From: Fidelibacterota bacterium
GTDB taxonomy: Bacteria; Fidelibacterota; UBA2242
Length of the DNA stretch: 33,568 nucleotides
Reading direction: 5' to 3'
Assembly: GCA_016783665.1 (NCBI GenBank)
Contig: JADHWC010000021.1
Location: 1-33,568 of the forward strand
Position 1 is the first letter of the stretch. Each line of letters begins with the position of its first letter. The translations under genes and the position numbers were made by a program. Of the stretch, positions 9,529-25,315 are shown one piece after another. The notes beneath the pieces were generated by a model. The model did not search any database. It worked only from the letters and a program-made list of their open reading frames with translations, and was not told where the DNA came from.

Positions 9529-11319
9529 TTATTTTGAACTTAATACACTGAAAAAATAAATAGCCTCGGCTGTACCATCCAGGGTCGGTTCGTTAGTGCT
9601 GTAGTCTCCTAAATCATCATGAAATACAATATAATCGGACTGGAACCAAGCATATTCATCATCTTCATGAAGACGAATACCTTTCAGACTGTTGTATATT
9701 GAGGCATAGACCGGTCCGTCATTCAATCCGCCAATCGGTAAGCGGTTCAGATGCGGAACCATAGGTGTGTGCGGATGAAGCGGTGTAACTCCATCTTTGG
9801 GAATGCCAACAAACTGACTCACGCCCCAGGGATTGCAACCCAACAGCCAGTCCCTATGCGTAGCCATCAATTCCCGGTATTGAATATCACCTGTCATTTT
9901 CTCGTATAGCAGGCACTGAGTCACAAATGCCGCCGCCAGATTATTGGAACACCAGATAAAGGGGATTCCAATCAGAAACGGATTCTCTTTTGCTCTCTTT
10001 TGAACCGCTTCGATTTGTTCTTTATAATATCCTATTAATGTATCTTTAAACGCTTCATCTGCCACTTCAAACAAGGCATAATGTCCCATGTTCATGAATG
10101 GATAGCACTCATAATGCCGGGCAGTATCTTTGCCCATCCAGGAAGAAGTGTTGATTAATTTCGCAAATCCTTTAGCCTCACGCAAATACGTCGAATCTTT
10201 TGTTCCTTTGTATAGTTCCGCAGCGCCCCACTCCATGTCATCCGCCCAGGTATTCTCATAGTAGCGATAAGGCGCCCGGCAGGGTGTTCCCTCCTGGCAG
10301 CCCGGCTGTTTGAGTCCCATTTCGTACACTTCCAGACCGGCTTTCAGACAACGGTTGGCAAAATCTTCATCACCAAGATCCTCTTTCCAGACCCGGTAAG
10401 CCATCGCCATAGCCGCTGCGTAACGTCCTGTAAGATTTGCAATTCCGGTCGATGTATTCTGGTATTTAAACAGTCCCTGGGGTTTTCCGTTGGCATAATA
10501 GACTACACGGTAATTGCCCGGTCCCCAGCCATAATCAGCGGTGTCCAGATGTGGCAGTTTAAAGCCCACATGATCGCGGTCATCGGCCACCTGATGAAAC
10601 AGCTGATCCGGCGCCGGATGCATTTTCAACATCCATTCAAGTCCCCATTTTATCTCATCCAGCACATCGGCAATTCCATTGGCTCCGGGTTGACCGAGAT
10701 CATTAAAATTATCCGCAAATACGTCTTTATTTTCCAGGTAAGCAAACAACATTCGGCAGATGGTGTTTCCCGAAGTCAGCATATAGCGCAGATGATCACC
10801 GGCATCGTGCCAGCCGCCACTTACATCGATATATGTGCTGTCGGGCATCGGACCGTACATGGTTCGCCCGTCTTTTTTGTGACAAACTTCATCAGTAAAG
10901 GGATTATACCCACACCGCTGCTGACGGATATACTGAAGAAGGTATTCGGAATAACCGTTATAAACATCATCTCCAATCGCAAATTCCTGGGACCGGGCTT
11001 CTTTTCCCTGGATTTTCAACCGATATTTACCGGGGTTTTGTACATTCGAAAAATCCAGGCGATAATGATATCTAAAATTTCCCCATTCGCCTACAGACGG
11101 TCCAATTTTATGTGACGTCCCGGTTACTTCACTCGTTGCAACATTGATAACCTGGAGTTTTTTACCATCAAGTTGCTTATTTGAAAAGACTACTGCAATT
11201 TTCATTTCCTGAGGGAAATATCCGATTTGGTTGACTCGCAAATAAACATTATCAGGTTTAGCCGTTAATAAAGTCAGGCATAAGAGAAACAGCCCAAAAA
11301 ATCTCACTATCTTGTTCAT
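9529..11319 (-). CDS. Glycoside hydrolase family 9 with N-terminal Ig-like domain
   Basis: A 596-residue exported enzyme. A signal peptide (residues 1-20) is followed by the Ig-like CelD-N domain ('VYLRVNQIGYFPQEMKIAVV', to about 115) and an (alpha/alpha)6 GH9 barrel. Catalytic aspartates lie in 'SGGWHDAGDH' (DAGD at 172-175) and the general acid in 'STNEPTLDGTAE' (Glu577). GH9 contains endoglucanases but also exo-beta-D-glucosaminidases from chitin-utilisation loci. The nearby deacetylases, NagA and ROK kinase make glucosaminidase activity on deacetylated chito-oligosaccharides a reasonable guess, but sequence alone does not settle it. No carbohydrate-binding module or sorting domain is present. 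It is the last gene of the receptor operon. Confidence 0.9.
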   Translation of the reverse strand: MNKIVRFFGLFLLCLTLLTAKPDNVYLRVNQIGYFPQEMKIAVVFSNKQLDGKKLQVINVATSEVTGTSHKIGPSVGEWGNFRYHYRLDFSNVQNPGKYRLKIQGKEARSQEFAIGDDVYNGYSEYLLQYIRQQRCGYNPFTDEVCHKKDGRTMYGPMPDSTYIDVSGGWHDAGDHLRYMLTSGNTICRMLFAYLENKDVFADNFNDLGQPGANGIADVLDEIKWGLEWMLKMHPAPDQLFHQVADDRDHVGFKLPHLDTADYGWGPGNYRVVYYANGKPQGLFKYQNTSTGIANLTGRYAAAMAMAYRVWKEDLGDEDFANRCLKAGLEVYEMGLKQPGCQEGTPCRAPYRYYENTWADDMEWGAAELYKGTKDSTYLREAKGFAKLINTSSWMGKDTARHYECYPFMNMGHYALFEVADEAFKDTLIGYYKEQIEAVQKRAKENPFLIGIPFIWCSNNLAAAFVTQCLLYEKMTGDIQYRELMATHRDWLLGCNPWGVSQFVGIPKDGVTPLHPHTPMVPHLNRLPIGGLNDGPVYASIYNSLKGIRLHEDDEYAWFQSDYIVFHDDLGDYSTNEPTLDGTAEAIYFFSVLSSK

Positions 11320-11353
11320 ATAAAGATCCTGTGTTTTTTAATTATCAACTATA

Positions 11354-12247
11354 TCAATATCCAGTTGCTTCAGGATTTTGCATGTTCTCTAATCCAACCC
11401 GGCTGATTAATTCCGTGTATGTTAATAATTTGATGTTATTGGCCGTAACGGCTTTGCGAAATTTTCCAGCACATAACGCAACGAGCTCCGCCTGACGGTG
11501 TTTACTCATTTCGGGAAGCCCGAAGGGATTTAGATCTTTCATTGCCTGCATTTCGGGAGTATCCTTGCCAATGTGAAACACCAGCAGATTGACACAATCT
11601 GAAGAAAGACGATCAACCCTCGCAACCAAACTGTCTATTTTATCAGAATAGGACACACTATAAATACTTTCGAAATCCATCTCGCTAAAATAACGACTAA
11701 TTCCCAGTTGGTATTCCGCTGCCAGGTTCTCAACCAGGGCGCAGAATTCCGGTGTACCGACTGCCGTTCCCATATGGTAATCCAGATAATCAATCTTTAG
11801 CCCGGTGTTAATAGCCCGGTCAATTTGCGCTCTCAATTCTTTTTCAACTTCGTTAATATCCGGCTGGCGCTCAAAAAATAATTTCCGCGATGGAAAAAAA
11901 TAACCGCAGCTATCTACCAGCGTTGGGGCACCTGCAGCTCCAATAACAGGTCCCCAGCGATAATTTTTCCATTCTGCATTCAAGGTCAGATGAACTCCAA
12001 TGGATACATTGGGATAATTCTTCAAAATATCCATAGCCTCCTGGTACCAGGGGCAGACAAACATCACCGACGCTGAAATCGGCAGTCCGGTCTCTAGCAC
12101 CTGTTTAGCCGCCATATTTACCGAATGACACATGCCGATATCGTCACAGCGAATCAATATTTCCGCGCCCCTCTTTTCCGGTGTCTTACCGCAATTCGAA
12201 AGAAAAACACCAGCAATAATAATAAAAATAAGAAGTAGGTTTTTCAT
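11354..12247 (-). CDS. YdjC/ChbG-family carbohydrate deacetylase, lipoprotein
   Basis: A 297-residue protein of the YdjC/ChbG fold. The metal site is visible as 'ILIRCDDIGMCHSVN' (Asp35, Asp36), 'IGVHLTLNAEW' (His86) and 'DYLDYHMGT' (His158). In E. coli, ChbG removes an acetyl group from chitobiose in the cytoplasm. This version instead starts with a lipoprotein signal, hydrophobic residues 3-15 and lipobox LSNC with Cys19, so it should act in the periplasm or on the cell surface. It sits 34 bases before the GH9 gene, which fits the order deacetylate, then cleave. Confidence 0.85.
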   Translation of the reverse strand: MKNLLLIFIIIAGVFLSNCGKTPEKRGAEILIRCDDIGMCHSVNMAAKQVLETGLPISASVMFVCPWYQEAMDILKNYPNVSIGVHLTLNAEWKNYRWGPVIGAAGAPTLVDSCGYFFPSRKLFFERQPDINEVEKELRAQIDRAINTGLKIDYLDYHMGTAVGTPEFCALVENLAAEYQLGISRYFSEMDFESIYSVSYSDKIDSLVARVDRLSSDCVNLLVFHIGKDTPEMQAMKDLNPFGLPEMSKHRQAELVALCAGKFRKAVTANNIKLLTYTELISRVGLENMQNPEATGY

Positions 12248-12268
12248 AATCTAAACAATTTAATTATT

Positions 12269-13270
12269 CTAATATGAAACGCCAATGGAAAATGTGTGGG
12301 TTGCATCGAAAATTCCATAATCCTGATAGGCATAGTCCAACCGAAGCTTTATACCGTCGATTTTTTTATGTACTCCCATACCGAAAGTCAATCCCCGTTC
12401 GTCATAATTGCCCATATATCCTGTTCTCAGAATCAGCATTTTCTGAAACGTATACTCAGTACCCACTTTAATTTTTTCCAGATAATCCCGTGGATGTGAA
12501 GACTCAAAACCGATGATCAGATGATGATTCTCGTTATCGAGTGATAAAATCGAAAGCGGATTCAGACTCAGGCTGAAACTGACTGCATAGGGCATGGGAA
12601 CTTTGTCCACTTCATACTTAATTTCTCTTGAAAAATTCTGTATCACCGCACCAAATCGAATTCCGTGATTTAAAAAATCATAAGTCGTGCCGACATCAAT
12701 TGCCGGTTCTCCATGATTATATTTTACAAGGCTAATGGTTGTATCACCAGCCAAAATTGTTCCCGTCCAGACACTTCCCAAATCCTGATATGCGTATTTT
12801 ATACGAATTCCATAGGAGAAACGGTTATTTACTTTTTGGCTGTAGGTAAATCCGATTGCGTAACTGCCGGGTTGAAAGAGTTCCGTTTTTACGTAACCCT
12901 GTTCGTTGTCCGCATACTGAGTTCCCTGAAATTCGCCATAATCCATTGTAAGAAAATCCAGCGCCAGAACTCCAAACTTGTCAAGCGCCACAGAACCTGC
13001 AAAAGAGCTGTAATTAATATCGGCAATTCCGCTGGTATAATTAGCATTAAAGTCAAACTTAGAATCCTGCCAGGCTAATCCTGAGGGGTTCCAGAAAACC
13101 GTATTTGAATTATAAAACAGCGTCAAACCAAGCCCGCCTCTGCCAATCGCTTCAGCAGAAACCGGATTATCCAGGAACCGGAAACCGGTTTGTCCACGTT
13201 TAACAATTTTGGCGAAGCCTGGTACAGCCAGTAAAATTGTGAATACGATGATTAAATATTTATACTTCAT
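12269..13270 (-). CDS. PorV/PorQ-family outer-membrane beta-barrel protein
   Basis: About 333 residues: signal peptide, then 'RFLDNPVSAEAIGRGGLGLTL' and 'NTVFWNPSGLAW', the N-terminal hallmark of PorV/PorQ proteins, then alternating barrel strands ending in aromatic 'HTFSIGVSY'. The family has a FadL-like barrel. PorV escorts T9SS cargo to the surface in Porphyromonas. Here the upstream gene encodes a protein with a T9SS-like sorting domain, so the barrel may be its anchor or shuttle; that is inference. A longer frame opens at 13456 inside the upstream gene. I chose 13270 because it has GGAG seven bases upstream and starts a signal peptide. Confidence 0.82.
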   Translation of the reverse strand: MKYKYLIIVFTILLAVPGFAKIVKRGQTGFRFLDNPVSAEAIGRGGLGLTLFYNSNTVFWNPSGLAWQDSKFDFNANYTSGIADINYSSFAGSVALDKFGVLALDFLTMDYGEFQGTQYADNEQGYVKTELFQPGSYAIGFTYSQKVNNRFSYGIRIKYAYQDLGSVWTGTILAGDTTISLVKYNHGEPAIDVGTTYDFLNHGIRFGAVIQNFSREIKYEVDKVPMPYAVSFSLSLNPLSILSLDNENHHLIIGFESSHPRDYLEKIKVGTEYTFQKMLILRTGYMGNYDERGLTFGMGVHKKIDGIKLRLDYAYQDYGIFDATHTFSIGVSY

Positions 13271-13280
13271 GATGTTCTCC

Positions 13281-15398
13281 TTAGCGTACCAATACAAACT
13301 TAACAAAATGATCCGGCAGTGATTTTCCCGAAAATGATTCTGATTCTGTAACAGCCAAAATATAGATACCACTGGATACAAACTGATTGTTTTTGGTTTT
13401 CTGTTCCCAGATTTCCTGATCGGTTCCGGCATGATCAATTGAATTAATGAAGTCACCGGTTTCCGTGTAGATTGTTAATAAACACCGATAAGGCAAATTA
13501 ACAAAACTTATCTGGTTCGGTTTATCCGGATAACCGAAAATCCCGGCAGCAGTACTTGCCGGATTTGGGACCACCAGAGCCCTGTCTGATTCCGCCAATC
13601 CCTCTTTAAAAGGTATCGCCGCAATGGCTGATCGATTGACATATCGACTGCTTTCCAGCATTTCACCGGGATTCAATCCATCCGTATTCTGAGAGCCATC
13701 ATCCACAGCAGTAACCGCATAATAATAGCTGACTCCTCGGATAACATCGGTATCAATATAGCTGAGTTCGTTGCGGCCGGTGGTTTCATAAATCATTTCC
13801 CAATAATTACTGCTCTGAATACCTGATGGGTCATTCACATATGCTGCTCCTATTTTTCGATAAATTCGCCAGGCATACCAATCATCAACTTTTGTGTCGG
13901 GATCCAAGTAATAATCCGGATCAGGATAACTCCATTCCACAATAACCCTGTCAGCATCACTGGTAATTTCAACATCCGGCGGAGGCGGCGGATCCGGAAT
14001 ATCAAAGCTCCTCTGCCAGGCCCATTTCGCTCGATCCAATGCGTGAAACAGCGAATCCCGTCCGCTTAGTAAAACGGAATCTTTTTCGGAATCCGAAATT
14101 TCGCCTTTCAACCACGCCCGGCCAACTGTATCAGCAACCGCCCGTGAAATAGAGCCGACTCCGATTGCATATACTGCACATATTGAATCATAGCTCGCTG
14201 CCTGAGAATTTTTAGTCAGTTCATATGGACCGACCGTAATAAACCGCATTGGCCCGTACTGACTCTGATTCGAACTCAACCATCCCTCCGTTATTGGATC
14301 CAGGGGAAACTTTCCCCTGTTATCGTGCCCAATATAAGTATCCCGTAATCCAAAGTCTCTCCTTCCCCAGAGGTCACCCGAGATTTCCGCATGAGGCATC
14401 GAATAAGGCTGAGATTGATCATCGTCATCTGGATTAAAACTGTTTTTAGCACAGTGTAATAATGTAAATCCGGGAATCTGAGTTGAAATCAGGTGTCCTG
14501 TACTGCGTTCCGGATCACCAATATCATCCGTACTGCCATTCTGATATACTCTTATACCCGGACGTTTATAATCCCAGTAATAAGCAACCTTCATACTATC
14601 CCGCAATTCGCCCTGGTTCAAAACTGACTTTCCGGCAAACCAGCTATCCAGATCATCAACCCCTTCGTAAGCAAATCCACCCATGGCAAAATATTCACCC
14701 GCCTTCGACGGCCCGAAGCTGAATGATAATGGCCACCATAACCGAATAGTCTGATCAGGGAAAAATCTACTCGAATCAGGGCTCTCAATCGGTCGCCTGG
14801 TCTCTCCGGTAAATTTATAGGAAGCCTTCCAGATCAGATAGTTCTCATGATTGTGATTACTGAAACCAATTAGTTCAATATGTGTTCGGATTCCCCAGTA
14901 TGGTATAATATCTTCCCAAACTGCTTTCATGTCCGGTTTTAAATCAGGATCGACCTGCCATGTATATTCCTGCTGCTGAGCAATTCCGTCAACGGTTACA
15001 TAGGGCGGCCGATACCGACGGATTTCCTGTGAGAAGTCATTGATACCATTGCTGACGAATGGGGTCGGAATGATTTTACGGTTTCCAAAGTTATCGATAA
15101 AACCGCTGTCGTCTGGCGCAATAGGATTAAATATTTGATACAGTAACCGGGAATGCCATTCATCCTGGGGATACTGAAATATCTCGGACTTGACATTTCC
15201 GTCCGTCAGCATCCAACTGTATTGGGTTGTAAACTGACCTTCACCATTGATCTTTTTCATATCCAGTTTAATGGCATTGACATTCAAGAACATCGGCGGG
15301 CCGGTATATTTTTTCTGTCCAGGTGCTGATGTTGTGACAGCAATTATTCCACTTAAAATAATAACACTTAATGATTTCATTGAAATTCTAATCCTCAT
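13281..15398 (-). CDS. Large exported FN3-like protein with T9SS-type sorting domain
   Basis: About 705 residues and not a family I can name. A signal peptide (about residues 1-28) is followed by a long N-terminal region rich in W, Y and D ('PYWGIRTHIELIGFSNHNHENY', 'LWWPLSFSFGPSKAGEYFAMGG'). A PPPPP linker comes next, then a fibronectin-III-like module ('ITSDADRVIVEWSYPDPD', 'YYYAVTAVDDGSQ') near residues 470-570. The C-terminal module ('VVPNPAS', 'ISFVNLP', 'LLTIYTETGDFINSI', 'SSGIYILAVTE', 'KFVLVR') has the T9SS type A sorting-domain pattern. It probably sits on the surface beside the receptor and barrel, possibly as a glycan-binding partner in place of SusD. GGGGTGAT before the ATG at 15398 supports the start. 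Confidence 0.8.
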   Translation of the reverse strand: MRIRISMKSLSVIILSGIIAVTTSAPGQKKYTGPPMFLNVNAIKLDMKKINGEGQFTTQYSWMLTDGNVKSEIFQYPQDEWHSRLLYQIFNPIAPDDSGFIDNFGNRKIIPTPFVSNGINDFSQEIRRYRPPYVTVDGIAQQQEYTWQVDPDLKPDMKAVWEDIIPYWGIRTHIELIGFSNHNHENYLIWKASYKFTGETRRPIESPDSSRFFPDQTIRLWWPLSFSFGPSKAGEYFAMGGFAYEGVDDLDSWFAGKSVLNQGELRDSMKVAYYWDYKRPGIRVYQNGSTDDIGDPERSTGHLISTQIPGFTLLHCAKNSFNPDDDDQSQPYSMPHAEISGDLWGRRDFGLRDTYIGHDNRGKFPLDPITEGWLSSNQSQYGPMRFITVGPYELTKNSQAASYDSICAVYAIGVGSISRAVADTVGRAWLKGEISDSEKDSVLLSGRDSLFHALDRAKWAWQRSFDIPDPPPPPDVEITSDADRVIVEWSYPDPDYYLDPDTKVDDWYAWRIYRKIGAAYVNDPSGIQSSNYWEMIYETTGRNELSYIDTDVIRGVSYYYAVTAVDDGSQNTDGLNPGEMLESSRYVNRSAIAAIPFKEGLAESDRALVVPNPASTAAGIFGYPDKPNQISFVNLPYRCLLTIYTETGDFINSIDHAGTDQEIWEQKTKNNQFVSSGIYILAVTESESFSGKSLPDHFVKFVLVR

Positions 15399-15411
15399 AA
15401 TATCACCCCTT

Positions 15412-18400
15412 TTAGAAATTAATCCGAAGACCAATTAAAACTCGCCTCGGATTCAGGAACAGTGGTGTTGTAAACCAACCCTGGTCAATATAAGCATTGG
15501 TCTCTCTCCGGCGATCATTTCGATTCATAATTTCCTCGTTTAATTGTGCAAATTCTTCCGGTGTGTAATTTGGATCATCAATTTCAATAAGTGCTTCCAG
15601 TGGATCATATTCAACACCTGCCGGGCGGTACTCACCCCATTTATCATTACCTTTGTGTTCACCCGATTCCCAGGGGAAACATAGGGATTCTTTATACCGG
15701 TTGTATTGGGTAGTACTCATACCATTGATATACAGACGTTTAATATTCAGAAAGTTTGTGACAGTCAATACCAATTCACAATTCACATTGGATACTTTAA
15801 ATCCCTTTGATGCCCGCAAATCGAGATTTGAGAAATCCATAACATTGGCTTTTCTCTGGACACCGGTCAGAGGATCGGACTGGATAACAATTTTACCACC
15901 GTCCCGCCAATCGTACAGCAGATTGACATATAATTTACAAAAAGGTTTGAATCCCAGCATACGTATCCCCCAGTCCGAAGGGGTATGTAAATTGATATTC
16001 ACATTCGCCCGCGGTTGCGGTTCCAGAAAATCCTGATCGGCATTGCGAAGTTCGTCCTGGGCCTCCACCTGGTTTTCGTAGACTGTCTTTAGCCCAACCT
16101 GTCCCCAACTTTTTAACATATATTCGTAATTTGCCCAAAATGTCAAAAAGCGTCCATAATTTCTCTCCAGCCGCAATTCCAGGCCACGAATATCGGCATA
16201 GGCATCGGGATAGTATCGGCTCACGTTGAACTCCTGGTTATAGTCCCAGAAAGTCCGGCTTAACGGTTCGTTTTTCAGATCCTTATAATAAAATGTGACA
16301 TTGAAAAGTAATGTCTCCAGAAACTGCTGTTCATATCCAAATTCATAGGCTACTGTGCGCCCCATTTCAAGGTCTGAGGACGGTAAGATTGCCGCACCTG
16401 TGGAAATTCCCAGATTATACAGGAAGGACATATTTGGTTTTTGATAAAAATGCCCGTAATTAAAATAGAGTTTACTCCTGGATGTTACCGGAAAGGAAAC
16501 GCCAAGCCGGGGTGACAATTTCAGTTGGGCTTTTGCCCGTTCACCATCCCAGCCGGGAGGACTATCCAGCATTTCGCGAAATACTTCCCAGCGCTCATAA
16601 CTTCCCCACTCACCAGGTAAGTACTGATAGATTTGATTATAGAAGTAGGCGTAGTCCTCATCCAGTGGAAAATATATCGGATAGACTTTATTTTGGGGAT
16701 CAAAATAATCCAATCGCAAACCGGCAGAAGCGATCATACCCTCAAACTCAAGCTTATCCTGAATATAAACGCCAGCTTCGATGGGACGGATTTTATAGTA
16801 TTGCCATGTATCGGGTATTCCGGGCGCATATAGTTTTTCCGATTGCATCCAGGCGCCGGCATAGACAAAGGAGTAGGAATATTGAAATACAAAACCGGTT
16901 TCAAACTGGTGGTTATGTCCCAGCTGGGCTGTTAAATCTCCTTTCATGCTTAAGGTCCAGGAATACGATGAGTCCACCTGTTGCAACCCACCATACATCT
17001 GAAACAAATCCGTAATATCGTATGACCAGTTTGTCGAACCATAAGGAGTTCCGACACTTGGATAGCGTACTATTTTCATGGTGGAATCAATTTCTACCCA
17101 GGCAGAAGCTAGGGATGTATCGGCACTATAGGGATTAATCTCATTATCCTGGTACGTGAACTGTGTCTCCAAGTTAAAAAATGCTTTTGATGACAGGGTG
17201 CGATTTAATTTTACGCCTCCCATAAACCAGCGCTGATCCAGATACTGTAACTGACTCTGATTGAACATATTGATAAAACCGTTACTGCTGCCGAGAATCC
17301 GGGCAAGTTGTTCAACGGAACTCTGCGAACTGCTCATAAAATTAAACTTACTTGAATAATCCAACAAAGCACCACCCAGACTGGAAGGTCGGCTGCCGGT
17401 ATTTGTCTCGACCTTGGCATAGAATGCATTCATTGACATTTTTGTATTCGGTGAAAGGTAAGAGGTTAATTTTATCTGACCGTTATAATCGGTATAAGAC
17501 TGTCTTGGACCGATCGGGAAAGCAAATTGTGTATTCTCATATTTGCCGGCTGCTAAAAATGTAAATCTTTCGATTGTACTACCGATCAAAGGCAAACCTT
17601 TTCCCGGTACCGGCCCGGTAAGAGTTCCCTCAATGTAGACATCCGGCTTTTTTGCAAATTCATATTCAGGATGCTGAACAAGCCAGATCGCGCGTTTCTG
17701 CTCGGGAGTAAGTTTTGCATTCGAAGGCAGCCCAATAACCTGATAATTCTTACGACCTTCCCGGCTACTGTTCCAGCCTTTAAATCCTTTCAGATCATTG
17801 GGAAATCCGAGAGGCAACAATTCATCATCAGGAACACCTTCCCAGCAATAAACATGGTACATACTATCCGAAGGATCAAAATAAGTGAAATTTGTATCCG
17901 TATAGACTTTTGCTATCCATGAATCATTACCCCATGGGTTACTGCCAAAGAACTTATAATCACTTTTCGATGTCATGTCAATTTTCAGTGAAAGGCTGTA
18001 TTTATCCCGTTTCCCCTCTTTGGTCACAACATTGACTAAACCGGATTTAAAACCGCCATATTTGGCCTCAAAGCCCCCAGTAAGTACCTGCAATTCCTCA
18101 ATTGACGTTGAGTTCAGGGATAAATAAGAGTTTCCCGAGCGGAGATCACGGGCAGAAATGCCGTCAATCCGGACATCGGTTTCACGAACGCTTCCCCCCC
18201 GGATACTCAGTCCGTGACCGTCATTATCCGTAACCAGGTCAACACCTTTGACTTTATTGACAAATTCATCCAGTCGTAAGATTGGCGCCTCTGTAATCCG
18301 CTCTGTTAAAATGATTTCCTGTGTGCCCGATACGTCAGCTTTGATTACTTCCCGATGGGCAGTTACTTCAACGGTTCCCAGCTCGAGTACCGTCGATTCA

Positions 18401-18741
18401 AGCGAAAAATCGAGATTTATCGTCCTATCTGTATTAACACGAACCTGCTCAATTACCATGGGTTTATAACCTATCATCATTGCTTTGACATTATAGGTTC
18501 CCGGCCGAACATTCAGGATAAAATAATAACCATCCTTGTCGCTGGCGGCCCCCTGTTTTATCGACAATTCAAAGGCCTGGTTGTTTTCCCAGTAGCTTTC
18601 CACGATAATATTGGTACCAATAATTGGTCCTCCGGTTTCATGATCACGGACCCTTCCGGCAATTTTTCCACCCAAAGCAAAAAGAGAACTTGCCAGAAAT
18701 AATGAAATCATGAAAAAAAATGATTTGCTCACTTGTTTCAC
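15412..18741 (-). CDS. TonB-dependent receptor with CarboxypepD-reg-like domain
   Basis: About 1109 residues. A signal peptide is followed by a carboxypeptidase-regulatory-like domain ('GKIAGRVRDHETGGPIIGTN', 'GYYFILNVRPGTYNVKAMMI'), a plug ('SIRGGSVRETDVRIDGIS', 'ELQVLTGGFEAKYGGFKSGLVNVVT') and a long barrel ending in 'RRVLIGLRINF'. It should import an oligosaccharide across the outer membrane using TonB energy. No SusD gene follows. The frame opens with a GTG at 18756, but the next codons are AGGAGGAGG, themselves the ribosome-binding site. I therefore place the start at the GTG at 18741, which gives a normal signal peptide. It is the first gene of a five-gene operon. Confidence 0.9.
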   Translation of the reverse strand: MKQVSKSFFFMISLFLASSLFALGGKIAGRVRDHETGGPIIGTNIIVESYWENNQAFELSIKQGAASDKDGYYFILNVRPGTYNVKAMMIGYKPMVIEQVRVNTDRTINLDFSLESTVLELGTVEVTAHREVIKADVSGTQEIILTERITEAPILRLDEFVNKVKGVDLVTDNDGHGLSIRGGSVRETDVRIDGISARDLRSGNSYLSLNSTSIEELQVLTGGFEAKYGGFKSGLVNVVTKEGKRDKYSLSLKIDMTSKSDYKFFGSNPWGNDSWIAKVYTDTNFTYFDPSDSMYHVYCWEGVPDDELLPLGFPNDLKGFKGWNSSREGRKNYQVIGLPSNAKLTPEQKRAIWLVQHPEYEFAKKPDVYIEGTLTGPVPGKGLPLIGSTIERFTFLAAGKYENTQFAFPIGPRQSYTDYNGQIKLTSYLSPNTKMSMNAFYAKVETNTGSRPSSLGGALLDYSSKFNFMSSSQSSVEQLARILGSSNGFINMFNQSQLQYLDQRWFMGGVKLNRTLSSKAFFNLETQFTYQDNEINPYSADTSLASAWVEIDSTMKIVRYPSVGTPYGSTNWSYDITDLFQMYGGLQQVDSSYSWTLSMKGDLTAQLGHNHQFETGFVFQYSYSFVYAGAWMQSEKLYAPGIPDTWQYYKIRPIEAGVYIQDKLEFEGMIASAGLRLDYFDPQNKVYPIYFPLDEDYAYFYNQIYQYLPGEWGSYERWEVFREMLDSPPGWDGERAKAQLKLSPRLGVSFPVTSRSKLYFNYGHFYQKPNMSFLYNLGISTGAAILPSSDLEMGRTVAYEFGYEQQFLETLLFNVTFYYKDLKNEPLSRTFWDYNQEFNVSRYYPDAYADIRGLELRLERNYGRFLTFWANYEYMLKSWGQVGLKTVYENQVEAQDELRNADQDFLEPQPRANVNINLHTPSDWGIRMLGFKPFCKLYVNLLYDWRDGGKIVIQSDPLTGVQRKANVMDFSNLDLRASKGFKVSNVNCELVLTVTNFLNIKRLYINGMSTTQYNRYKESLCFPWESGEHKGNDKWGEYRPAGVEYDPLEALIEIDDPNYTPEEFAQLNEEIMNRNDRRRETNAYIDQGWFTTPLFLNPRRVLIGLRINF

Positions 18742-18753
18742 TTTCCTCCTCCT
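18742..18753 (-). promoter_or_regulatory. Ribosome-binding site that decides the receptor start
   Basis: On the minus strand, AGGAGGAGG lies just before AAA and a GTG at 18741. The longer frame starting at 18756 would translate this site as three arginines, which is unlikely. The spacing of the first AGGAGG to the GTG is six bases. Confidence 0.6.
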
Positions 18754-18810
18754 CACCTTAATAAGTCTTCAATTTTGCATTTTTCGAGCAATAAAATCAT
18801 AAATACCATA

Positions 18811-19002
18811 TCAGGCAGATTCCCGTACAATCAGCTATAAATCTAAAAACTTCTGAATTGGCGGTTTACAACTGTGCTCAATCAATGCAATCAAACTTTC
18901 CGCCGCTAACTTACCAATCATTAACAACGGCTGTTTAATCGTCGTCAACGCCGGACGAACATATCTGGCTATATCGATGTTATTAAATCCGACCACGGCG
19001 AT
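18811..19002 (-). pseudogene. C-terminal remnant of a second LacI-family regulator
   Basis: The minus strand encodes 'IAVVGFNNIDIARYVRPALT', 'TIKQPLLMIGKLAAESLIAL' and then 'PPIQKFLDL', nearly the same as the last 60 residues of the intact LacI gene next door, at roughly 70% DNA identity by eye. A TAG at 18835-18837 replaces the CAG (Gln) of the intact gene. After it the homology goes on in frame ('LIVRESA') to the matching final stop at 18811. The DNA-binding domain and most of the sugar-binding domain are missing; homology stops near 19002. It is a diverged, decayed tandem paralogue rather than a recent copy. Confidence 0.85.
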
Positions 19003-19024
19003 ACCATGAAAAAAGCCGTTTGAT

Positions 19025-19042
19025 TGTCCTGATATAAGGACA
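19025..19042. repeat. Short inverted repeat TGTCCT-gatata-AGGACA
   Basis: Perfect six-base arms around a six-base loop, between the operator at 19072 and the lacI remnant. It could be a regulatory site in the leader of the receptor operon or chance. Nothing else in 18742-18810 stands out; that stretch is AT-rich leader. Confidence 0.3.
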
Positions 19043-19071
19043 TTGCATACTGAATTTTTTATCTCCCTTTG

Positions 19072-19085
19072 TGTTATCGATAACA
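19072..19085. promoter_or_regulatory. LacI-type operator, second copy (TGTTATCGATAACA)
   Basis: A 14-base perfect palindrome identical to the core of the site at 20258-20275. It lies between the intact lacI gene and the remnant, about 330 bases upstream of the receptor start. On the minus strand a weak TTGTTA-17-GATAAA pair overlaps it. It may let the LacI protein control the receptor operon. Even, CpG-centred palindromes of this kind are typical of LacI-family operators; binding is inferred. Confidence 0.6.
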
Positions 19086-19126
19086 ATCATGGTTAAAATA
19101 TTAATAGCGATCCCTCCTAAATAATT

Positions 19127-20167
19127 CTATGCTGATTCTCGTACAATTAGCTGTAAATCCAAAAATTTCTGAATCGGCGGCTCTTGAACATGCTCAATCA
19201 AATCAATCAGGTTTTCCGCAGCCAGTTTTCCAATCATCATTAAGGGCTGCTTGATGGTTGTTAAGGCTGGTCTTGTAAATTTTGCGATATCAATATTATT
19301 GAATCCAATGACGGCTATATCATCCGGCACTGATAACTCCCGCTCAATAATTCGCTCCATTACTGCAATTGCCATATAATCATCGGCACAAAAAATTGCA
19401 TCCGGGATTGTTTGACCGTTAAGTAAGTTATCCACCGCCTGATATGCTCGTCCGGCATCAAAATTGGCATCAATAACCCAGTTTGGATTCAACGTCAGTC
19501 CTAACCGGCTCATCGCCTCTTCGTAACCTTTTAGTCGGTCGATCCCGTTACTTTCTTCCTTGCTGCCCGATATGAAGGCAATATGCCGGCACCCTTTTTC
19601 AAACAGATAGTTTACGGCGATTTCGGCGCCCTCAACGTTTCTAGTATCGATAAAATTAACTCTCTGATCGGCAGTGCGGTGATTTATCAGGACAGCGGGA
19701 AATCCCGAATCAATCAGGGATTCCAGATTTAGGTCATTTATTTTCGGTTTTAACATGATGAGCCCGTCAAGCAGCTTACTTCGGGCTATATCGAGATAGA
19801 GATTGCTGGATTTTTCATGTTCTTCAACCGGGTAAATCATCAAACGGTAGTCCTGCTGCTTTACAACGGTCATGACGCCGCTAAGTATCTGGGCGATATA
19901 GTTGTCTAAAAAAACCTGCTTGGTTTTAGGAATGATGACACCGATTGTCATGGTCCGTTGACTGGATAAAATCCGGGCGATTAAATTGGGTATATAATCC
20001 ATCTGTTCGACGGCATTCAGGATTTTATTTCTGGTGGATTCGGCAACGATACCTTTTCCGCTGACGACCCTGGAAACGGTCATGGCTGATACCCCGGTTT
20101 TATCCGCGATATCGTTAAGAGTTATCTTATTAATTTTATTGGCAGCTATTGTATCAGAATTACCCAT
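19127..20167 (-). CDS. LacI-family transcriptional regulator
   Basis: About 346 residues. The N-terminal helix-turn-helix reads 'ITLNDIADKTGVSAMTVSRV' followed by the hinge helix 'NLIARILSSQRT'. A periplasmic-binding-protein-like sensor domain follows, ending in 'IAVIGFNNIDIAKFTRPALT'. It should be released from DNA by a sugar or sugar phosphate from this locus. It is divergent to the ROK-MFS-SIS operon, with the palindrome GTTATCGATAAC between them and again just downstream of its own stop. ATG at 20167 is preferred over a TTG two codons upstream. The regulated genes are inferred from operator positions. Confidence 0.92.
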   Translation of the reverse strand: MGNSDTIAANKINKITLNDIADKTGVSAMTVSRVVSGKGIVAESTRNKILNAVEQMDYIPNLIARILSSQRTMTIGVIIPKTKQVFLDNYIAQILSGVMTVVKQQDYRLMIYPVEEHEKSSNLYLDIARSKLLDGLIMLKPKINDLNLESLIDSGFPAVLINHRTADQRVNFIDTRNVEGAEIAVNYLFEKGCRHIAFISGSKEESNGIDRLKGYEEAMSRLGLTLNPNWVIDANFDAGRAYQAVDNLLNGQTIPDAIFCADDYMAIAVMERIIERELSVPDDIAVIGFNNIDIAKFTRPALTTIKQPLMMIGKLAAENLIDLIEHVQEPPIQKFLDLQLIVRESA

Positions 20168-20224
20168 ATTCAAAGGTCTGTTTTTGTTGTCGTTTCAATA
20201 ATTTCAATTAAATTTAAAATATAT

Positions 20225-20253
20225 TTGAATTCTCGTTTTTCCTTTTGTATATT
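20225..20253 (+). promoter_or_regulatory. Predicted promoter of the ROK-MFS-SIS operon
   Basis: TTGAAT (20225-20230) and TATATT (20248-20253) are exactly 17 bases apart. Transcription would start near 20260, inside the LacI palindrome at 20258-20275, so a bound repressor would block initiation. The remaining leader to 20389 contains no other clear signal except GGGAGG just before the ATG at 20390. Confidence 0.5.
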
Positions 20254-20257
20254 TCTC

Positions 20258-20275
20258 TATGTTATCGATAACATA
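20258..20275. promoter_or_regulatory. LacI-type operator, first copy (TATGTTATCGATAACATA)
   Basis: An 18-base perfect palindrome centred on CG, in the 222-base gap between lacI and the divergent ROK operon. Its 12-base core GTTATCGATAAC recurs exactly at 19073-19084. Position at the predicted transcription start fits repression of the catabolic operon. Confidence 0.75.
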
Positions 20276-20389
20276 CAAAGAAGGAATTAAAATTACAAGA
20301 CTTTCGTGAATTTCTTAAAAATATTTCTGCCTTTTTCTTTCCTTCTCTGCATTTTCTAAACAACCTAGCTTTAAGAATAGGGAGGATCT

Positions 20390-21346
20390 ATGGCTGTCAT
20401 TGCAATTGACTTGGGAGGTACGAAATCTTCAGCAGCGCTGGTCTCACCGGACGGGTCGGTTCTGATTCGGGACAAAGTGGAAATTACCCGCAAAAGCGGT
20501 ACGCTGGTCAGTAAAATCTTACAGAAACAGATTCAGACATTATACACAAAGGCCCTAAGAAGTGGGCAGGATGTCAGCGGCATCGGTGTTTCTGTTCCCG
20601 GTATTTATTATTCACAAACCGGTCATGTCTGGGCACCGAATATCCCCGGATGGAAGGATTATCCGCTCCAGCAGGAGTTGCAGAACACTATCCCGGATAT
20701 CCCGGTCAAGATTGACAGTGACCGCGCTGCCTATATCCTTGGAGAAACCTGGCTGGGTGCCGCCCGCGGCTGTCGGAACGCTGTTTTTATCGCTGTGGGC
20801 ACCGGAATTGGAGCGGGCATTATGGTGGATGGAACCATTCTGCGTGGGCATGCTGACATTGCCGGCGCCACCGGCTGGATGTCGCTTACGCCAACGTTTC
20901 GATCAGAATATACTCGCTTTGGCTGTTTTGAGTACCACGCGTCCGGAGATGGATTGGCCCGAGTAGCCCGGGATATGGTCAATGAGGATCAGGATTATTA
21001 TGGTCTTTTACGGAATCCCCTGCCGGAACATATTTCGTCCTATGACGTATTCGAAGCCTTTACTGCAGGTGACGCATTAGCCCAGGAAGTCATCAATCAG
21101 GCAATCAAATTCTGGGGAATGGTTACCGCAAATTTCATTAGTCTGTTTAATCCCGAAATCATTGTTTTTGGGGGAGGATTATTCGGACCGGCTATTCAGT
21201 TTATCCCCTTGATTATAAAGGAAGCCCAGCGATGGGCACAACCAATCGCCTTTAACCAGGTTCGAATCGAAGGTTCTAAAATCGGTGGCGAAGCAGGGCT
21301 CTACGGCGCTGCGAAAATTGCCCTGTCTGTGTTATCAGAGGAGTGA
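20390..21346 (+). CDS. ROK-family sugar kinase, atypical (zinc site lost)
   Basis: A 318-residue ROK protein without a helix-turn-helix, so a kinase rather than a repressor. ATP-binding 'IDLGGT' is at residues 6-11, 'IGVSVPG' near 65-71, catalytic Asp111 lies in 'SDRAAYILGE', and 'VGTGIGAGI' follows. Usual members have AGEIGH and a CxCGxxGCxE zinc motif. Here the matching places read 'AGATGW' and 'RFGCFEYHASG', so the sugar-contacting Glu, the zinc His and two cysteines are missing. It likely phosphorylates a sugar made by this locus (GlcNAc or a relative), but specificity may differ. It is the first gene of a three-gene operon opposite lacI. Confidence 0.85.
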   Translation: MAVIAIDLGGTKSSAALVSPDGSVLIRDKVEITRKSGTLVSKILQKQIQTLYTKALRSGQDVSGIGVSVPGIYYSQTGHVWAPNIPGWKDYPLQQELQNTIPDIPVKIDSDRAAYILGETWLGAARGCRNAVFIAVGTGIGAGIMVDGTILRGHADIAGATGWMSLTPTFRSEYTRFGCFEYHASGDGLARVARDMVNEDQDYYGLLRNPLPEHISSYDVFEAFTAGDALAQEVINQAIKFWGMVTANFISLFNPEIIVFGGGLFGPAIQFIPLIIKEAQRWAQPIAFNQVRIEGSKIGGEAGLYGAAKIALSVLSEE

Positions 21347-21348
21347 GT

Positions 21349-22509
21349 ATGTACAATAAACAACGTGTATTTTGGGCTGCCTGCATCGGTATGCTGCTGT
21401 TTGGTATCGTTATGATTTCACTGGGGACGATAAACACGTTTCTGGCAGCCAAACTCGCTCTGGATGAACTTACAATCGCATCCCTGGCAGCACTCTTGCC
21501 CTTCGGTATTCTGATCGGCTCATTGGTTTTTGGACCGATTGTCGATCGCTACGGATATAAGATTGTTTTGATTAGCTGTGCACTGTTAATCCTGATCGCT
21601 ATTGAAGGTATTGCGTTCGCTTCAAATTTCTTTTTTATCCAACTGTCTTTTTTTCTGATCGGTTTCGGTGGTGGTGCCATCAACGGCAGTACCAATGCGC
21701 TGGTGGCGGATATCAGCGCGGAAAATAAAGGCGCCCGGCTAAGTCTGCTGGGTGTTTTCTACGGTATCGGTGCACTCGGTATGCCGATGATTTTAGGCCT
21801 CATGTCCAAATATTTCAGTTACACCAGTGTGGTCAAGGTTATCGGTGGGCTTGTTCTGCTGCCGGCGATTTACTTCACCGCGATCAAATTCCCCGAGCCA
21901 AAACACAAACAGGGTTTCCCTCTTAAAGAAAGTATCGGCCTGCTGAAGGAAAAAACACTTGTCCTGATTGGTTTTGTGCTCTTCTTTGAAAGCGGAATTG
22001 AAGGCATTGTCAATAACTGGACAACAACTTATCTTCAAAAAAATATTCATGCCGATCCCAAAAATGCACTTTTTGCACTTTCCAGCTTAGTAATCGCCCT
22101 GTCATTGACCCGTTTAGTTCTGGGCGATCTACTCAAACGAATTCGCCCATATCTGGTCCTGTTCGGATGTCTTTCCTTTATTGTGATGGGATCGATTCTG
22201 ATGATGCTCAGTTCCACCTATATCCCCAGCGTTATTGGACTGATTTTCATGGGCATCGGTTTTGCCGCCGGTTTTCCGGTTATGCTGGGATATGTCAGCG
22301 ACCTTTATCCCGATTTTTCTGGAACGGCGTTCAGTATTGTTTTTGTAATTGCCCTGCTGGGTAATACGTTAATTAATTATCTGGTCGGAATAATTGCCCA
22401 TAATTTTGGAATCCACCATTACCTGACCGTTATATTAATCAGTGTAATGGCGATGTTTGTGCTATTATCTATTGTTCTCAAACAAATCAAAGAAACCGTA
22501 AAAATCTAA
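21349..22509 (+). CDS. MFS sugar transporter
   Basis: About 386 residues with twelve predicted membrane segments in two halves joined by a charged loop ('KFPEPKHKQGFPLKESIGLL'). The MFS loop 2-3 signature is 'GPIVDRYGYKIVL'. General style is close to FHS-type sugar:proton symporters. Placement between a ROK kinase and a SIS protein suggests inner-membrane uptake of the sugar released in the periplasm. GAGGAG at 21338-21343 overlaps the end of the kinase gene and serves the ATG at 21349, so translation is probably coupled. Confidence 0.88.
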   Translation: MYNKQRVFWAACIGMLLFGIVMISLGTINTFLAAKLALDELTIASLAALLPFGILIGSLVFGPIVDRYGYKIVLISCALLILIAIEGIAFASNFFFIQLSFFLIGFGGGAINGSTNALVADISAENKGARLSLLGVFYGIGALGMPMILGLMSKYFSYTSVVKVIGGLVLLPAIYFTAIKFPEPKHKQGFPLKESIGLLKEKTLVLIGFVLFFESGIEGIVNNWTTTYLQKNIHADPKNALFALSSLVIALSLTRLVLGDLLKRIRPYLVLFGCLSFIVMGSILMMLSSTYIPSVIGLIFMGIGFAAGFPVMLGYVSDLYPDFSGTAFSIVFVIALLGNTLINYLVGIIAHNFGIHHYLTVILISVMAMFVLLSIVLKQIKETVKI

Positions 22510-22522
22510 CTTAGGAGTTACA

Positions 22523-23287
22523 ATGTCACTGGCAAAAGAATGGTTAAACAACACCCGGAAAGTAATAGATACTATCGAAGCTACTCAAATGGAAAATATC
22601 CGTAAAGCTGCTGAAGTTATGGCTGATTCAATCGCCGCCTGCCGGTGGGTACATACCTTTGGATGCGGTCACGCTACCCTACCAATAGAAGAAATGTACC
22701 CCAGAATAGGCGGTTTTGTAGGCTTTCATCCCATGATTGAATTACCACTTTCATTTTTTACACATATTGTTGGTGAAATGGGTGTGCATCAATTTGTTTT
22801 CCTGGAACGGGTCGAAGGATACGGTCAGGAAATCATGAAAGGTTACAATTTTGATCCGCGGGATACCATGTGGATATTCTCCCATTCCGGTATCAATAAT
22901 GTAAATATTGACGTTGCCCTGGAATCAAAAAAACTCGGAATGAAAGTCATCGCCTATGGCTCCGCCACAGAAGCAAAGGGCAAAAAAACGCGGCATTCCT
23001 GCGGCAAAACCATTTTTGATATCGCTGATATTATCGTCGATAGCTGTACACCATTACAGGATGCCTCTGTGGATCTGAAAAATCATCAAGACAAAATCGG
23101 ACCGGTCTCCACAATGGCATTTATTACAACAGTCTGGACGACCATTACAACTGTGGCAGAAATTCTAGTGGAGCGCGGTGAAAAACTCTATATCCATCCC
23201 TCACACAATGTTCCGGGAGATACAACCGCCAGAGAAAGATTAACGGAAGCACTGGATATGTATAAAAAAAGGATTGCAGGGGTATAA
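22523..23287 (+). CDS. SIS-domain sugar-phosphate-binding protein (UPF0309-like)
   Basis: A 254-residue single SIS-domain protein. 'WVHTFGCGHATLPIEEMYPR' opens the domain, 'WIFSHSGINNVNIDVALESK' carries the phosphate-binding serine loop, and 'GMKVIAYGS' and 'DIADIIVDSCTPLQDA' complete the fold. It resembles the UPF0309 group, which often sits with sugar kinases and transporters. SIS domains bind phosphosugars and isomerise or deaminate them. No nagB gene is visible here, so this protein is a candidate to turn GlcN-6-P, or another amino-sugar phosphate, into a glycolytic intermediate. That role is inference. A clear AGGAG stands before the ATG. Confidence 0.82.
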   Translation: MSLAKEWLNNTRKVIDTIEATQMENIRKAAEVMADSIAACRWVHTFGCGHATLPIEEMYPRIGGFVGFHPMIELPLSFFTHIVGEMGVHQFVFLERVEGYGQEIMKGYNFDPRDTMWIFSHSGINNVNIDVALESKKLGMKVIAYGSATEAKGKKTRHSCGKTIFDIADIIVDSCTPLQDASVDLKNHQDKIGPVSTMAFITTVWTTITTVAEILVERGEKLYIHPSHNVPGDTTARERLTEALDMYKKRIAGV

Positions 23288-23322
23288 ATTCGACATAAAA
23301 TATTTATATTTAACTACAGAAG

Positions 23323-24486
23323 CTATTCTTCTTCTTTTCGAAAGACAACCCTACCATCTATAATGGTCGTATCGATAGAAAAATCCGGCTCCATAATCAC
23401 GAGATCAGCATCTTTTCCGATCTCGATAGTCCCTTTTCGATCAAACAATCCTAAAAGTTCAGCCGGATTTTTTGTGATTGTATCAATCGCTGTAGCTAAA
23501 TCGCACCCGGTATATTCTTGAAAACGGGCGGCAATATGTCCAACACTCAATGCCGTACCGATCAGAGTTCCATCATCATAGCGGGCGGAACCGTCTTTGG
23601 ATTCATATTCACGGTCATTATAAATATATTTTCCCTCAGGCAGACCGATTGCCTGAATGCCGTCAGTGATACAGATACAACGGTTTTTACCCAGAGTGTG
23701 ATATAAATAATTCACAATACGGGGATGTAAATGAACACCATCGCTAATAATTTGCGCTGTTATATTATCGGATTCAAAAATCGCCAGCAACGGTCCCGGG
23801 AACCGATGGTGCAACGGAGCCATAGCATTAAAAATATGGGTAACATGATTGATTCCAGCCTTAAAACCGGTAAGAACCTCTTCATATGTAGCATTGGAAT
23901 GACCAAATGCCGGAATACAGTTATTTTTAATTAGCCTGTCGATGATAGCCAAACTTCCATCCATTTCCGGAGCAATGGTCATCATTTTCAGACTGCTCCC
24001 CAGAATATCATTTATCTCATCAAAAGCATATTTTGAAGGCGGATAAACTCCACCGGGCAAAATACCACCTTTCTTTACCGGATTAATAAATGGTCCTTCG
24101 AGATGGATACCCAGAATTTTAGCTCCGCCCAAATCCTTCATCCGGTTTTCCGCCAAGACTCTCAGATGTCGATTATTGTTTTCTGGTTTCATGACAGTGG
24201 TTGCTAAAAATCCGGTCACGCCGAACCGGGCAAGGGTCGTTGATATAGTTTCAAGCGCTTCAACACTTCCATCCAGAACATCCGATCCTCCGGCGCCCTG
24301 AATATGTACATCAATAAAACCGGGAGCTATTATTTTCCCCTGAGCATCAAGAATAACAATATTATCTGGTATTGTTTTAATTAACCCAATTTTACTGATT
24401 TTACCATCCTGTATAAAAACATCAATGTAATCCGTATCTGTTTGATCAGCCATCCGGCAATTTTTTATTATCAGATTATTTCTCAT
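23323..24486 (-). CDS. nagA: N-acetylglucosamine-6-phosphate deacetylase
   Basis: A 387-residue amidohydrolase with the NagA motif set: 'APGFIDVHIQGAGGSDVLDG', metal-binding Glu130 in 'GIHLEGPFINPVKKG', 'AFGHSNATYEEV', 'HVTHIFNAMAPLHHR', and the catalytic aspartate in 'CITDGIQAIGLP'. It removes acetate from GlcNAc-6-P in the cytoplasm. It converges with the SIS gene, 35 bases apart, and is read with the upstream NodB-like gene (40-base gap). It identifies the locus as one for N-acetylated amino sugars. I found no copy of the GTTATCGATAAC operator next to it. Confidence 0.93.
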   Translation of the reverse strand: MRNNLIIKNCRMADQTDTDYIDVFIQDGKISKIGLIKTIPDNIVILDAQGKIIAPGFIDVHIQGAGGSDVLDGSVEALETISTTLARFGVTGFLATTVMKPENNNRHLRVLAENRMKDLGGAKILGIHLEGPFINPVKKGGILPGGVYPPSKYAFDEINDILGSSLKMMTIAPEMDGSLAIIDRLIKNNCIPAFGHSNATYEEVLTGFKAGINHVTHIFNAMAPLHHRFPGPLLAIFESDNITAQIISDGVHLHPRIVNYLYHTLGKNRCICITDGIQAIGLPEGKYIYNDREYESKDGSARYDDGTLIGTALSVGHIAARFQEYTGCDLATAIDTITKNPAELLGLFDRKGTIEIGKDADLVIMEPDFSIDTTIIDGRVVFRKEEE

Positions 24487-24526
24487 ACTTTATTCCTTAA
24501 TTCCAAATTCACCATAAATCCGTGCA

Positions 24527-25315
24527 TCAAGCAGTAATCATTTCATCAATGCGCCGAAAATGATATCTTCTTTCAATCAGATTTTCCAGCAATGGCTGAA
24601 GATATTGATATAACTTATCCGTGCGTTCCGGATGAGTCCCAATGTGAATTAGTAAGAAAAATCCATTCAGACCATTTGGATTGTTTTGTTCATAATCCAA
24701 TATATTTTGATAAATCGTTTTAGAATCACGATAATTATGCATCGTTGGAATAGTGTAATCCGTGTGCGAGATAGTTCCCGGGGTCATATTAATTAACGTC
24801 AATCCCATTTCATCAGACCAATGGGAAATTGTGTCATTGTACCATTCATAGGGCGGAATATAGAAACGGGCCTTCTCTTTTGCAATTTCAAACCGCTGAA
24901 GCTCTTTATAGTTATCCAGCATATCCCGCACAAATTCTTCCCTGGTTACCAACAGTGAGTCCCGGTTTTCCCAACTGCAATACAGAAGGTGTTTGTCCGA
25001 GTGTGGTCCCAGGTAATGCCCATCATCAATGAGTTGTTTGACCAATGCCTCGTTCTCCTTATTCCGGTAAAAATCTCCGGTAAAGAAAAAACTGGCTGTA
25101 ATCATTTTCTGTTCCAATACAAAGCGAATATGCCAGCCTCCGTCACTGTAATCACCACCCGTAAACACCAGCGCAATTTCTTTTTTCGTACTGTCACCAC
25201 GAATTATTCCACCATGTGAAATTGTATATTTTGGTATGGATTGCTGACCACAATTCATCAGCATGAAAAGAAAGCCGGTTACTACGATCACTTTAGTTTG
25301 TACACCCTTCGTCAT
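24527..25315 (-). CDS. NodB-like polysaccharide deacetylase, lipoprotein
   Basis: About 262 residues. A hydrophobic signal ends in LMNC (Cys22), so it should be a lipoprotein. The NodB domain starts at 'EIALVFTGGDYSDGG', where TGGDY replaces the usual T-F-D-D-G, leaving one of the two aspartates (Asp55). The zinc-binding 'GPHSDKH' (105-109), 'FYIPPYEWYN' and 'GFFLLIHIGTHPERTDKL' are present. It probably deacetylates a chitin-type or peptidoglycan-type glycan, with altered catalytic-base geometry. A longer frame to 25408 begins with TTG and lacks a signal at its start, so I use the ATG at 25315. Confidence 0.82.
   Translation of the reverse strand: MTKGVQTKVIVVTGFLFMLMNCGQQSIPKYTISHGGIIRGDSTKKEIALVFTGGDYSDGGWHIRFVLEQKMITASFFFTGDFYRNKENEALVKQLIDDGHYLGPHSDKHLLYCSWENRDSLLVTREEFVRDMLDNYKELQRFEIAKEKARFYIPPYEWYNDTISHWSDEMGLTLINMTPGTISHTDYTIPTMHNYRDSKTIYQNILDYEQNNPNGLNGFFLLIHIGTHPERTDKLYQYLQPLLENLIERRYHFRRIDEMITA

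What the first reader, a model, noticed from the sequence alone, without database searches (positions are those of the whole stretch)
9529..25315. SusD-less amino-sugar utilisation locus built from a TonB receptor, a T9SS surface protein and a PorV-like barrel
Classical Bacteroidota glycan loci pair SusC with SusD. Here the receptor is followed at once by a large FN3-like protein with a T9SS-type sorting domain, then a PorV-like barrel, then a deacetylase and a GH9 enzyme. With lacI, ROK, MFS, SIS, NagA and a second deacetylase around them, this looks like a complete system for a chitin-derived or similar glycan. The T9SS protein and barrel may replace SusD as the surface binding and anchoring partners.
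Basis: partly seen in the sequence, partly recalled or inferred. Interest (0 to 1): 0.68.

Follow-up and report, generated by a model that had tools for sequence, protein, structure and literature searches.

The report
SusD-less amino-sugar uptake locus
This is a sugar-scavenging gene cluster of an uncultured bacterium in which the usual surface sugar-catching partner of the outer-membrane importer is absent, and a different exported surface protein with its own helper barrel sits in its place; the same three-gene set recurs in many related bacteria, although how it works has not been tested.

Summary
The genes are there as described: LacI, ROK, MFS, SIS, NagA and a polysaccharide deacetylase around an operon TonB receptor – exported surface protein – PorV/PorQ-family barrel – YdjC deacetylase – GH9. 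The genome (closest named relatives mostly Ca. Neomarinimicrobiota) has no SusD (PF07980) but has the T9SS translocon SprA. The trio is a real, widespread module: in 78 relatives' loci (Marinimicrobia, KSB1, Calditrichota, Ignavibacteria) 102/107 surface-protein genes follow a TonB receptor and 106/108 share an operon with a PorV-like barrel. The window's own clade carries amino-sugar genes in 17 of 20 loci from this phylum, against 0 of 71 loci with other clades. Two perfect LacI-type operators (TGTTATCGATAACA) lie before the two halves of the locus. New here: the surface protein's first ~440 residues are predicted to be a beta-supersandwich with linker helices, as in GH94/GH65/GH15/GH116 enzymes, without their catalytic barrel. 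Best reading: a PUL-like amino-sugar uptake system whose T9SS-exported, barrel-tethered supersandwich protein does the surface job of SusD. Substrate and contact with the receptor are unproven. The GH9 is not of the Vibrio exo-glucosaminidase type. New variant of a known kind; interest 0.6.

The parts
15412..18756 (-). TonB-dependent receptor (1114 aa): CarboxypepD_reg + Plug; not recognised by the SusC/RagA model itself
13281..15434 (-). Surface protein ('T9 protein', likely ATG start 15398): signal peptide by eye, predicted beta-supersandwich + linker helices (res ~40-477), FN3-like (~485-600), T9SS type A-like C-terminal domain (~620-717)
12269..13270 (-). PorV/PorQ-family outer-membrane barrel; probable shuttle/anchor of the T9 protein (ORF open from GTG 13456, likely ATG 13270)
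11354..12247 (-). YdjC-like carbohydrate deacetylase, lipobox-like LSNC (by eye)
9529..11319 (-). GH9 with CelD_N Ig domain, signal peptide by eye, DAGD (D172/D175) and C-terminal NEP motif intact
19127..20173 (-). LacI-family regulator
19072..19085 (+). LacI-type palindrome TGTTATCGATAACA, upstream of the receptor operon
   Evidence: 0.12 matches expected at <=2 mismatches, 3 found, 2 of them exact
20260..20273 (+). LacI-type palindrome TGTTATCGATAACA in the lacI/ROK divergent promoter region; same palindrome in the orthologous L187
20390..21346 (+). ROK-family sugar kinase
21343..22509 (+). MFS transporter (inner membrane), presumed for the sugar
22523..23287 (+). SIS-domain sugar isomerase/phosphosugar protein (NF002805)
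23323..24486 (-). NagA, N-acetylglucosamine-6-phosphate deacetylase
   Evidence: TIGR00221 308 vs 226 bits
24527..25315 (-). Polysaccharide deacetylase (CE4-type), lipobox-like MNC (by eye)

Best explanation
A PUL-like uptake and catabolism locus for a GlcNAc/GlcN-containing glycan. Shown: gene content, phylum-wide synteny of the trio with NagA/ROK/SIS/MFS/GH9, absence of SusD (PF07980) from the assembly, presence of the T9SS translocon, two identical operator-like palindromes. Predicted: fold of the T9 protein. Inferred: the T9 protein is sent through SprA by the type IX system and kept on the cell surface by the PorV-family barrel encoded next to it; its supersandwich domain, derived from or convergent with the non-catalytic domain of sugar enzymes, binds oligosaccharide at or over the TonB receptor, doing SusD's job; the receptor imports the oligosaccharide; YdjC removes acetyl groups and GH9 cuts beta-1,4 bonds in the periplasm; MFS takes up the monosaccharide, ROK phosphorylates it, NagA deacetylates it and SIS/NagB feed it to glycolysis; LacI shuts both halves off without sugar.
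For: Amino-sugar genes in 17/20 phylum loci of this T9 clade and 0/71 loci of other T9 clades; trio adjacency 102/107 and 106/108; trio members diverge together: orthologous receptors 48-66%, T9 47-93%, barrels 43-63% identical to the window's, against 27-33%, 23-28% and 28-37% for the rest; SusD absent from own genome and from all 16 genomes of the family sampled, T9 protein in 15 of them; SprA over cut-off; T9 C-terminal domain family; supersandwich fold Z 17.1, rmsd 3.1 A over 230 residues and 4.0 A over 273; operators; NagB elsewhere in the genome. Precedent for T9SS cargo with the shuttle/anchor gene directly downstream: PMC12618676, PMC9143113.
Against: No experiment; no complex could be modelled, so contact between T9 protein and receptor rests on gene order. 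A shared fold does not show sugar binding; the domain is not the catalytic one in GH94 and GH15 enzymes. The window T9 protein itself misses curated T9SS-tail models. The adjacent-shuttle precedents concern PorP/SprF barrels and type B tails, whereas here the barrel is PorV-like and the tail type A-like. Elsewhere in FCB phyla the same module is with GHL10, TIG lipoproteins and propellers rather than amino-sugar genes, so the module is not amino-sugar-specific by itself.
Confidence: 0.52

Rival explanations
1. The T9 protein is a T9SS-exported, barrel-tethered structural or adhesive surface protein, and the receptor acts without a lid; adjacency reflects co-assembly in the outer membrane, not joint sugar binding.
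For: Trio is found with many different neighbours across phyla; shared fold is no proof of binding; PorP/SprF-paired T9SS proteins studied so far include adhesins (PMC12618676).
Against: The receptor gene is directly upstream in 102/107 cases, and one clade tracks amino-sugar genes 17/20 vs 0/71; the fold is that of sugar enzymes.
Confidence: 0.25
2. The locus works on peptidoglycan-derived sugars (GlcNAc/MurNAc) rather than chitin or chitosan.
For: The commonest FCB version of the module is followed by GHL10 (14/89 near vs 2/83 far proteins) and sometimes Amidase_3; no GH18 over cut-off in the own genome; NagA and SIS fit GlcNAc from either source.
Against: The window version has GH9 and YdjC, which by family act on beta-1,4 glucans or chito-oligosaccharides; no MurNAc-specific gene was recognised in the locus.
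Confidence: 0.25
3. The GH9 is a beta-glucanase and the locus takes up a mixed glucan/amino-sugar polymer.
For: Closest solved relatives are endo-type GH9 enzymes (3x17 1.5e-32, J30, BoGH9A); the Vibrio exo-glucosaminidase 6gdt matches only by the N-terminal Ig domain and first loop (7e-7); active-site spacing DAGD, not DASGD as in VC0615 (PMC6096475).
Against: In family f8 the same operon carries NagA directly after the barrel; NagA and deacetylases point to amino sugar.
Confidence: 0.2

Closest known systems
SusCD-type polysaccharide utilisation loci of Bacteroidota; nearest by substrate the F. johnsoniae chitin locus ChiUL (PMC5127042)
   Same: TonB receptor + surface protein + glycan enzymes + regulator in one locus; in ChiUL a T9SS-secreted protein is also part of the system
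   Different: ChiUL has two SusC/D pairs and its T9SS protein is the chitinase ChiA; here there is no SusD, the exported protein has no catalytic domain and has its own PorV-family barrel, and the regulator is LacI
T9SS type B cargo with cognate PorP/SprF shuttle (SprB-SprF, PG1035-PorP; PMC12618676, PMC9143113)
   Same: Exported surface protein that depends on its own outer-membrane barrel, whose gene commonly lies directly downstream
   Different: Barrel is PorV/PorQ-family, tail is type A-like, and both are locked to a TonB receptor
GH94/GH65/GH15/GH116 enzymes (N-terminal beta-supersandwich + linker helices)
   Same: Predicted fold of T9 residues ~40-477 (Z 14-17)
   Different: The catalytic (alpha/alpha)6 barrel is absent; FN3 and sorting tail instead; sequence identity 4-12%
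Vibrionaceae exo-acting GH9 glucosaminidases (VC0615, PBPRA0520; PMC6096475)
   Same: GH9 with N-terminal Ig/Fn3 domain in an amino-sugar locus
   Different: Sequence closer to endo-type GH9; DAGD rather than DASGD

Membership tests
SusCD polysaccharide utilisation locus | SusD-family partner (PF07980) | tested here: not met
   0 in own assembly; 0 of 16 family genomes sampled, 36/149 in phylum. Assembly 92% complete; other SusD Pfam models not run
SusCD polysaccharide utilisation locus | SusC/RagA TonB receptor (TIGR04056) | tested here: not met
   Window receptor has no match at E<=1; 34/44 of the receptor set match at E<=1e-3 (best 1.5e-24), so distantly related
SusCD polysaccharide utilisation locus | Glycan-active enzymes and sugar regulator in the same conserved locus | tested here: met
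Type IX secretion cargo | C-terminal sorting domain (TIGR04183 / Por_Secre_tail / type A-like) | tested here: inconclusive
   Window copy below thresholds; 15/63 relatives TIGR04183, 34/63 PorZ tail
Type IX secretion cargo | Translocon SprA in the genome | tested here: met
   over cut-off, one 2084-aa frame on C51
PorV/PorQ family | NF033709 over cut-off | tested here: met
   168.7 vs 90 bits
PorV proper (NF033710) | Equivalog cut-off | tested here: not met
   66.5 vs 250 bits
PorP/SprF shuttle | Pfam PorP_SprF match | tested here: not met
   Only PorV PF19572 listed at E<=0.001, itself below its cut-off
GH94/GH65/GH15/GH116 enzyme | beta-supersandwich + linker helices | tested here: met
   AlphaFold pTM 0.87, pLDDT 81; VIA Z up to 17.1; prediction only
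GH94/GH65/GH15/GH116 enzyme | catalytic (alpha/alpha)6 barrel | tested here: not met
   Only about 240 residues follow the linker helices and they are predicted as strands (FN3 and tail)
Vibrio-type exo-glucosaminidase GH9 | Sequence subgroup and DASGD active site | tested here: not met
   6gdt 7e-7 over residues 27-180 only; window has DAGD (PMC6096475)
SusD analogue (glycan-binding lid on the receptor) | Binds glycan and contacts the TonB receptor | not testable with these tools
   No complex modelling or binding data

The most novel reading that the evidence does not exclude
A general, SusD-independent class of TonB-dependent glycan importers in the FCB phyla outside Bacteroidia: the receptor's surface partner is a catalytically empty glycosidase supersandwich exported by the type IX system and held by a dedicated PorV-family barrel, with substrate changing from clade to clade.
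Probability: 0.4. Interest if true: 0.82.

Novelty: new variant of a known kind. Interest (0 to 1): 0.6.

Why it matters
If right, SusCD is not the only way FCB bacteria couple a surface glycan receptor to a TonB importer, and the type IX system supplies core uptake parts rather than only enzymes and adhesins. It would give testable functions to a large set of unannotated proteins in uncultured phyla, and extra markers besides SusD for finding their polysaccharide loci. I found no description of this module in the open-access papers searched, which is weak evidence since most subscription papers are not held.

Tried and rejected
Sequence search of the T9 protein against solved structures: only a weak FN3 hit. 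Foldseek on the full model gave mostly multi-domain FN3 matches with low TM, little use until the domain was aligned and folded alone; Foldseek also lists copper amine oxidases beside the sugar enzymes, and its TM-scores stay near 0.3, so the fold assignment rests on VIA-align. Promoter/terminator consensus scan: 53 vs 41 and 14 vs 15 expected, not informative. GH9 as Vibrio-type exo-glucosaminidase: rejected. Receptor-T9 complex: no tool. Papers on the Caldithrix and Latescibacteria genomes mention TonB receptors for vitamins and iron but not this trio. Other SusD models (PF14322, PF12771, PF12741) were not run.

Full report
What was checked. The window is one contig (C19) of a 2.38 Mb, 121-contig, 92% complete assembly. 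Closest named relatives of the T9 protein (93-53% identity) are labelled mostly Candidatus Neomarinimicrobiota, with one each labelled KSB1, Melioribacter and unclassified bacterium; I take the host to be of that phylum (inference). On the minus strand from 18756 to 9529: TonB receptor, T9 protein, PorV/PorQ-family barrel, YdjC deacetylase, GH9. Around them: LacI, ROK, MFS, SIS, NagA, CE4-type deacetylase, then a PMI-type isomerase.

SusD and the secretion machinery. PF07980 has no hit in the assembly, while the Bacteroides control rings. In 149 genomes of the phylum 36 have a PF07980 hit (E<=1e-3), against 102 with a T9 relative (E<=1e-20); in the 16 sampled genomes of the window's own family the numbers are 0 and 15. 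SprA, the T9SS translocon, is present over cut-off.

The trio is a module. The same genome holds two further trios of the same type in tandem on C69, and other trios with a different, longer T9SS-type protein on C20 (followed by GH16 with a sorting tail and GH3), C89 (near GH94), C38, C58 and C95. In 78 loci from named genomes of Marinimicrobia, KSB1, Calditrichota, Ignavibacteria/Melioribacter, 102 of 107 T9 genes with an upstream gene in view follow a receptor, and 106 of 108 decidable ones share a same-strand run with a PorV-like barrel. Loci were found through the T9 protein, so this is not biased toward receptor or barrel, though contig-edge cases were set aside.

This clade goes with amino sugar. 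T9 orthologues form one clade (25 leaves, support 1.0, long stem). Of 20 phylum loci fetched, 17 carry at least one of GH9, YdjC, ROK, SIS, NagA above 120 bits; the exceptions are one short contig and the two most divergent (47-48%) copies. Named genomes give 5 of 7, at least two of these being the same genomes as in the first set. Of 71 loci with other T9 clades none does. Typical order: SIS-MFS-ROK divergent from receptor-T9-barrel-(YdjC)-GH9, or receptor-T9-barrel-NagA in family f8. Receptor, T9 and barrel all fall into the same close and distant groups.

Regulation. TGTTATCGATAACA occurs exactly twice, between lacI and ROK (20260) and upstream of the receptor operon (19072); 0.12 matches with up to two mismatches are expected and three were found. 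The same palindrome lies between ROK and lacI of the orthologous L187. That LacI binds it is inferred.

The T9 protein. AlphaFold with 63 relatives gives pLDDT 79.5 for the whole and, for residues 40-480 alone with 82 sequences, pLDDT 81 and pTM 0.87. VIA-align puts that part on the N-terminal supersandwich plus linker helices of GH116, GH15, GH94 and GH65 enzymes: Z 17.1 with rmsd 3.1 A over 230 residues (1lf6) and 4.0 A over 273 (7w2s); all 50 listed rows are sugar-active enzymes. Foldseek alone is much less clear. In those enzymes a catalytic (alpha/alpha)6 barrel follows; here only an FN3-like stretch and the tail follow. I read this as a catalytically empty, possibly glycan-binding, surface protein; binding itself is not shown.

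Mechanism. T9SS cargoes with type B tails are secreted and anchored through a PorP/SprF barrel commonly encoded just downstream (PMC12618676, PMC9143113). Here a PorV-family barrel holds that place, so export and tethering of the T9 protein is the economical reading; 34/63 relatives hit the PorZ tail and 15/63 TIGR04183. Constant adjacency to a receptor makes a receptor-partner role likely but not shown. The catabolic half fits GlcNAc: ROK kinase, NagA, SIS, with NagB elsewhere. The GH9 is nearer to endo-type enzymes than to Vibrio exo-glucosaminidases, and has DAGD rather than DASGD (PMC6096475). No GH18 reaches the cut-off, so the polymer is probably cut by others or is not chitin.

Wider picture. 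The common FCB version is two trios in tandem followed by a TIG lipoprotein, an SGL-type propeller and GHL10: near-neighbour proteins 26, 14 and 14 of 89; far controls 2 (TIG) and 2 (GHL10) of 83, SGL not among the families shown. The module may thus serve several glycans.

Verdict. Observation confirmed; interpretation partly supported and strengthened in its core; new variant of a known kind.

Noticed in passing
window 18815-19007: A 194-bp, 74% identical copy of the lacI 3' end (19131-19323) lies between lacI and the receptor, with stops in all frames: remnant of a second lacI gene.
   Followed up: partly
L109, L117, L121, L132, L136, L144 and others: Widespread FCB operon: receptor-T9-(lipoprotein)-PorV twice in tandem, then TIG lipoprotein, SGL propeller, GHL10; enriched near the trio against far controls.
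   Followed up: partly
L071:3389-4780 and the near-identical gene L072:8761-10152 (own genome C58, C95): A protein with a SurA-like N-terminal chaperone domain (tested on L071) sits between the T9SS-tailed protein and the PorV barrel, as if a dedicated chaperone.
   Followed up: no
L064:14438-18814 and L065:3002-5774 (own genome C83, C71): T9 relatives (1458 aa; at least 924 aa, open at contig end) with long repeated inserts of the kind '..VSPDGNDNNDGLT..' in place of the simple tail.
   Followed up: no
L070:6862-10371, L066, L069, L071, L072: A second, longer (about 1100-1230 aa) T9SS-type protein family pairs with receptors and PorV barrels in the same genome; no Pfam match (tested on L070); one copy is beside GH16 and GH3, one near GH94.
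   Followed up: partly
window 31244-33568: A second TonB receptor with a full barrel model, without T9 or PorV partner in view.
   Followed up: no
L061:515-3019 (own genome C69): NAGPA phosphodiester glycosidase with a T9SS tail near the two tandem trios.
   Followed up: no
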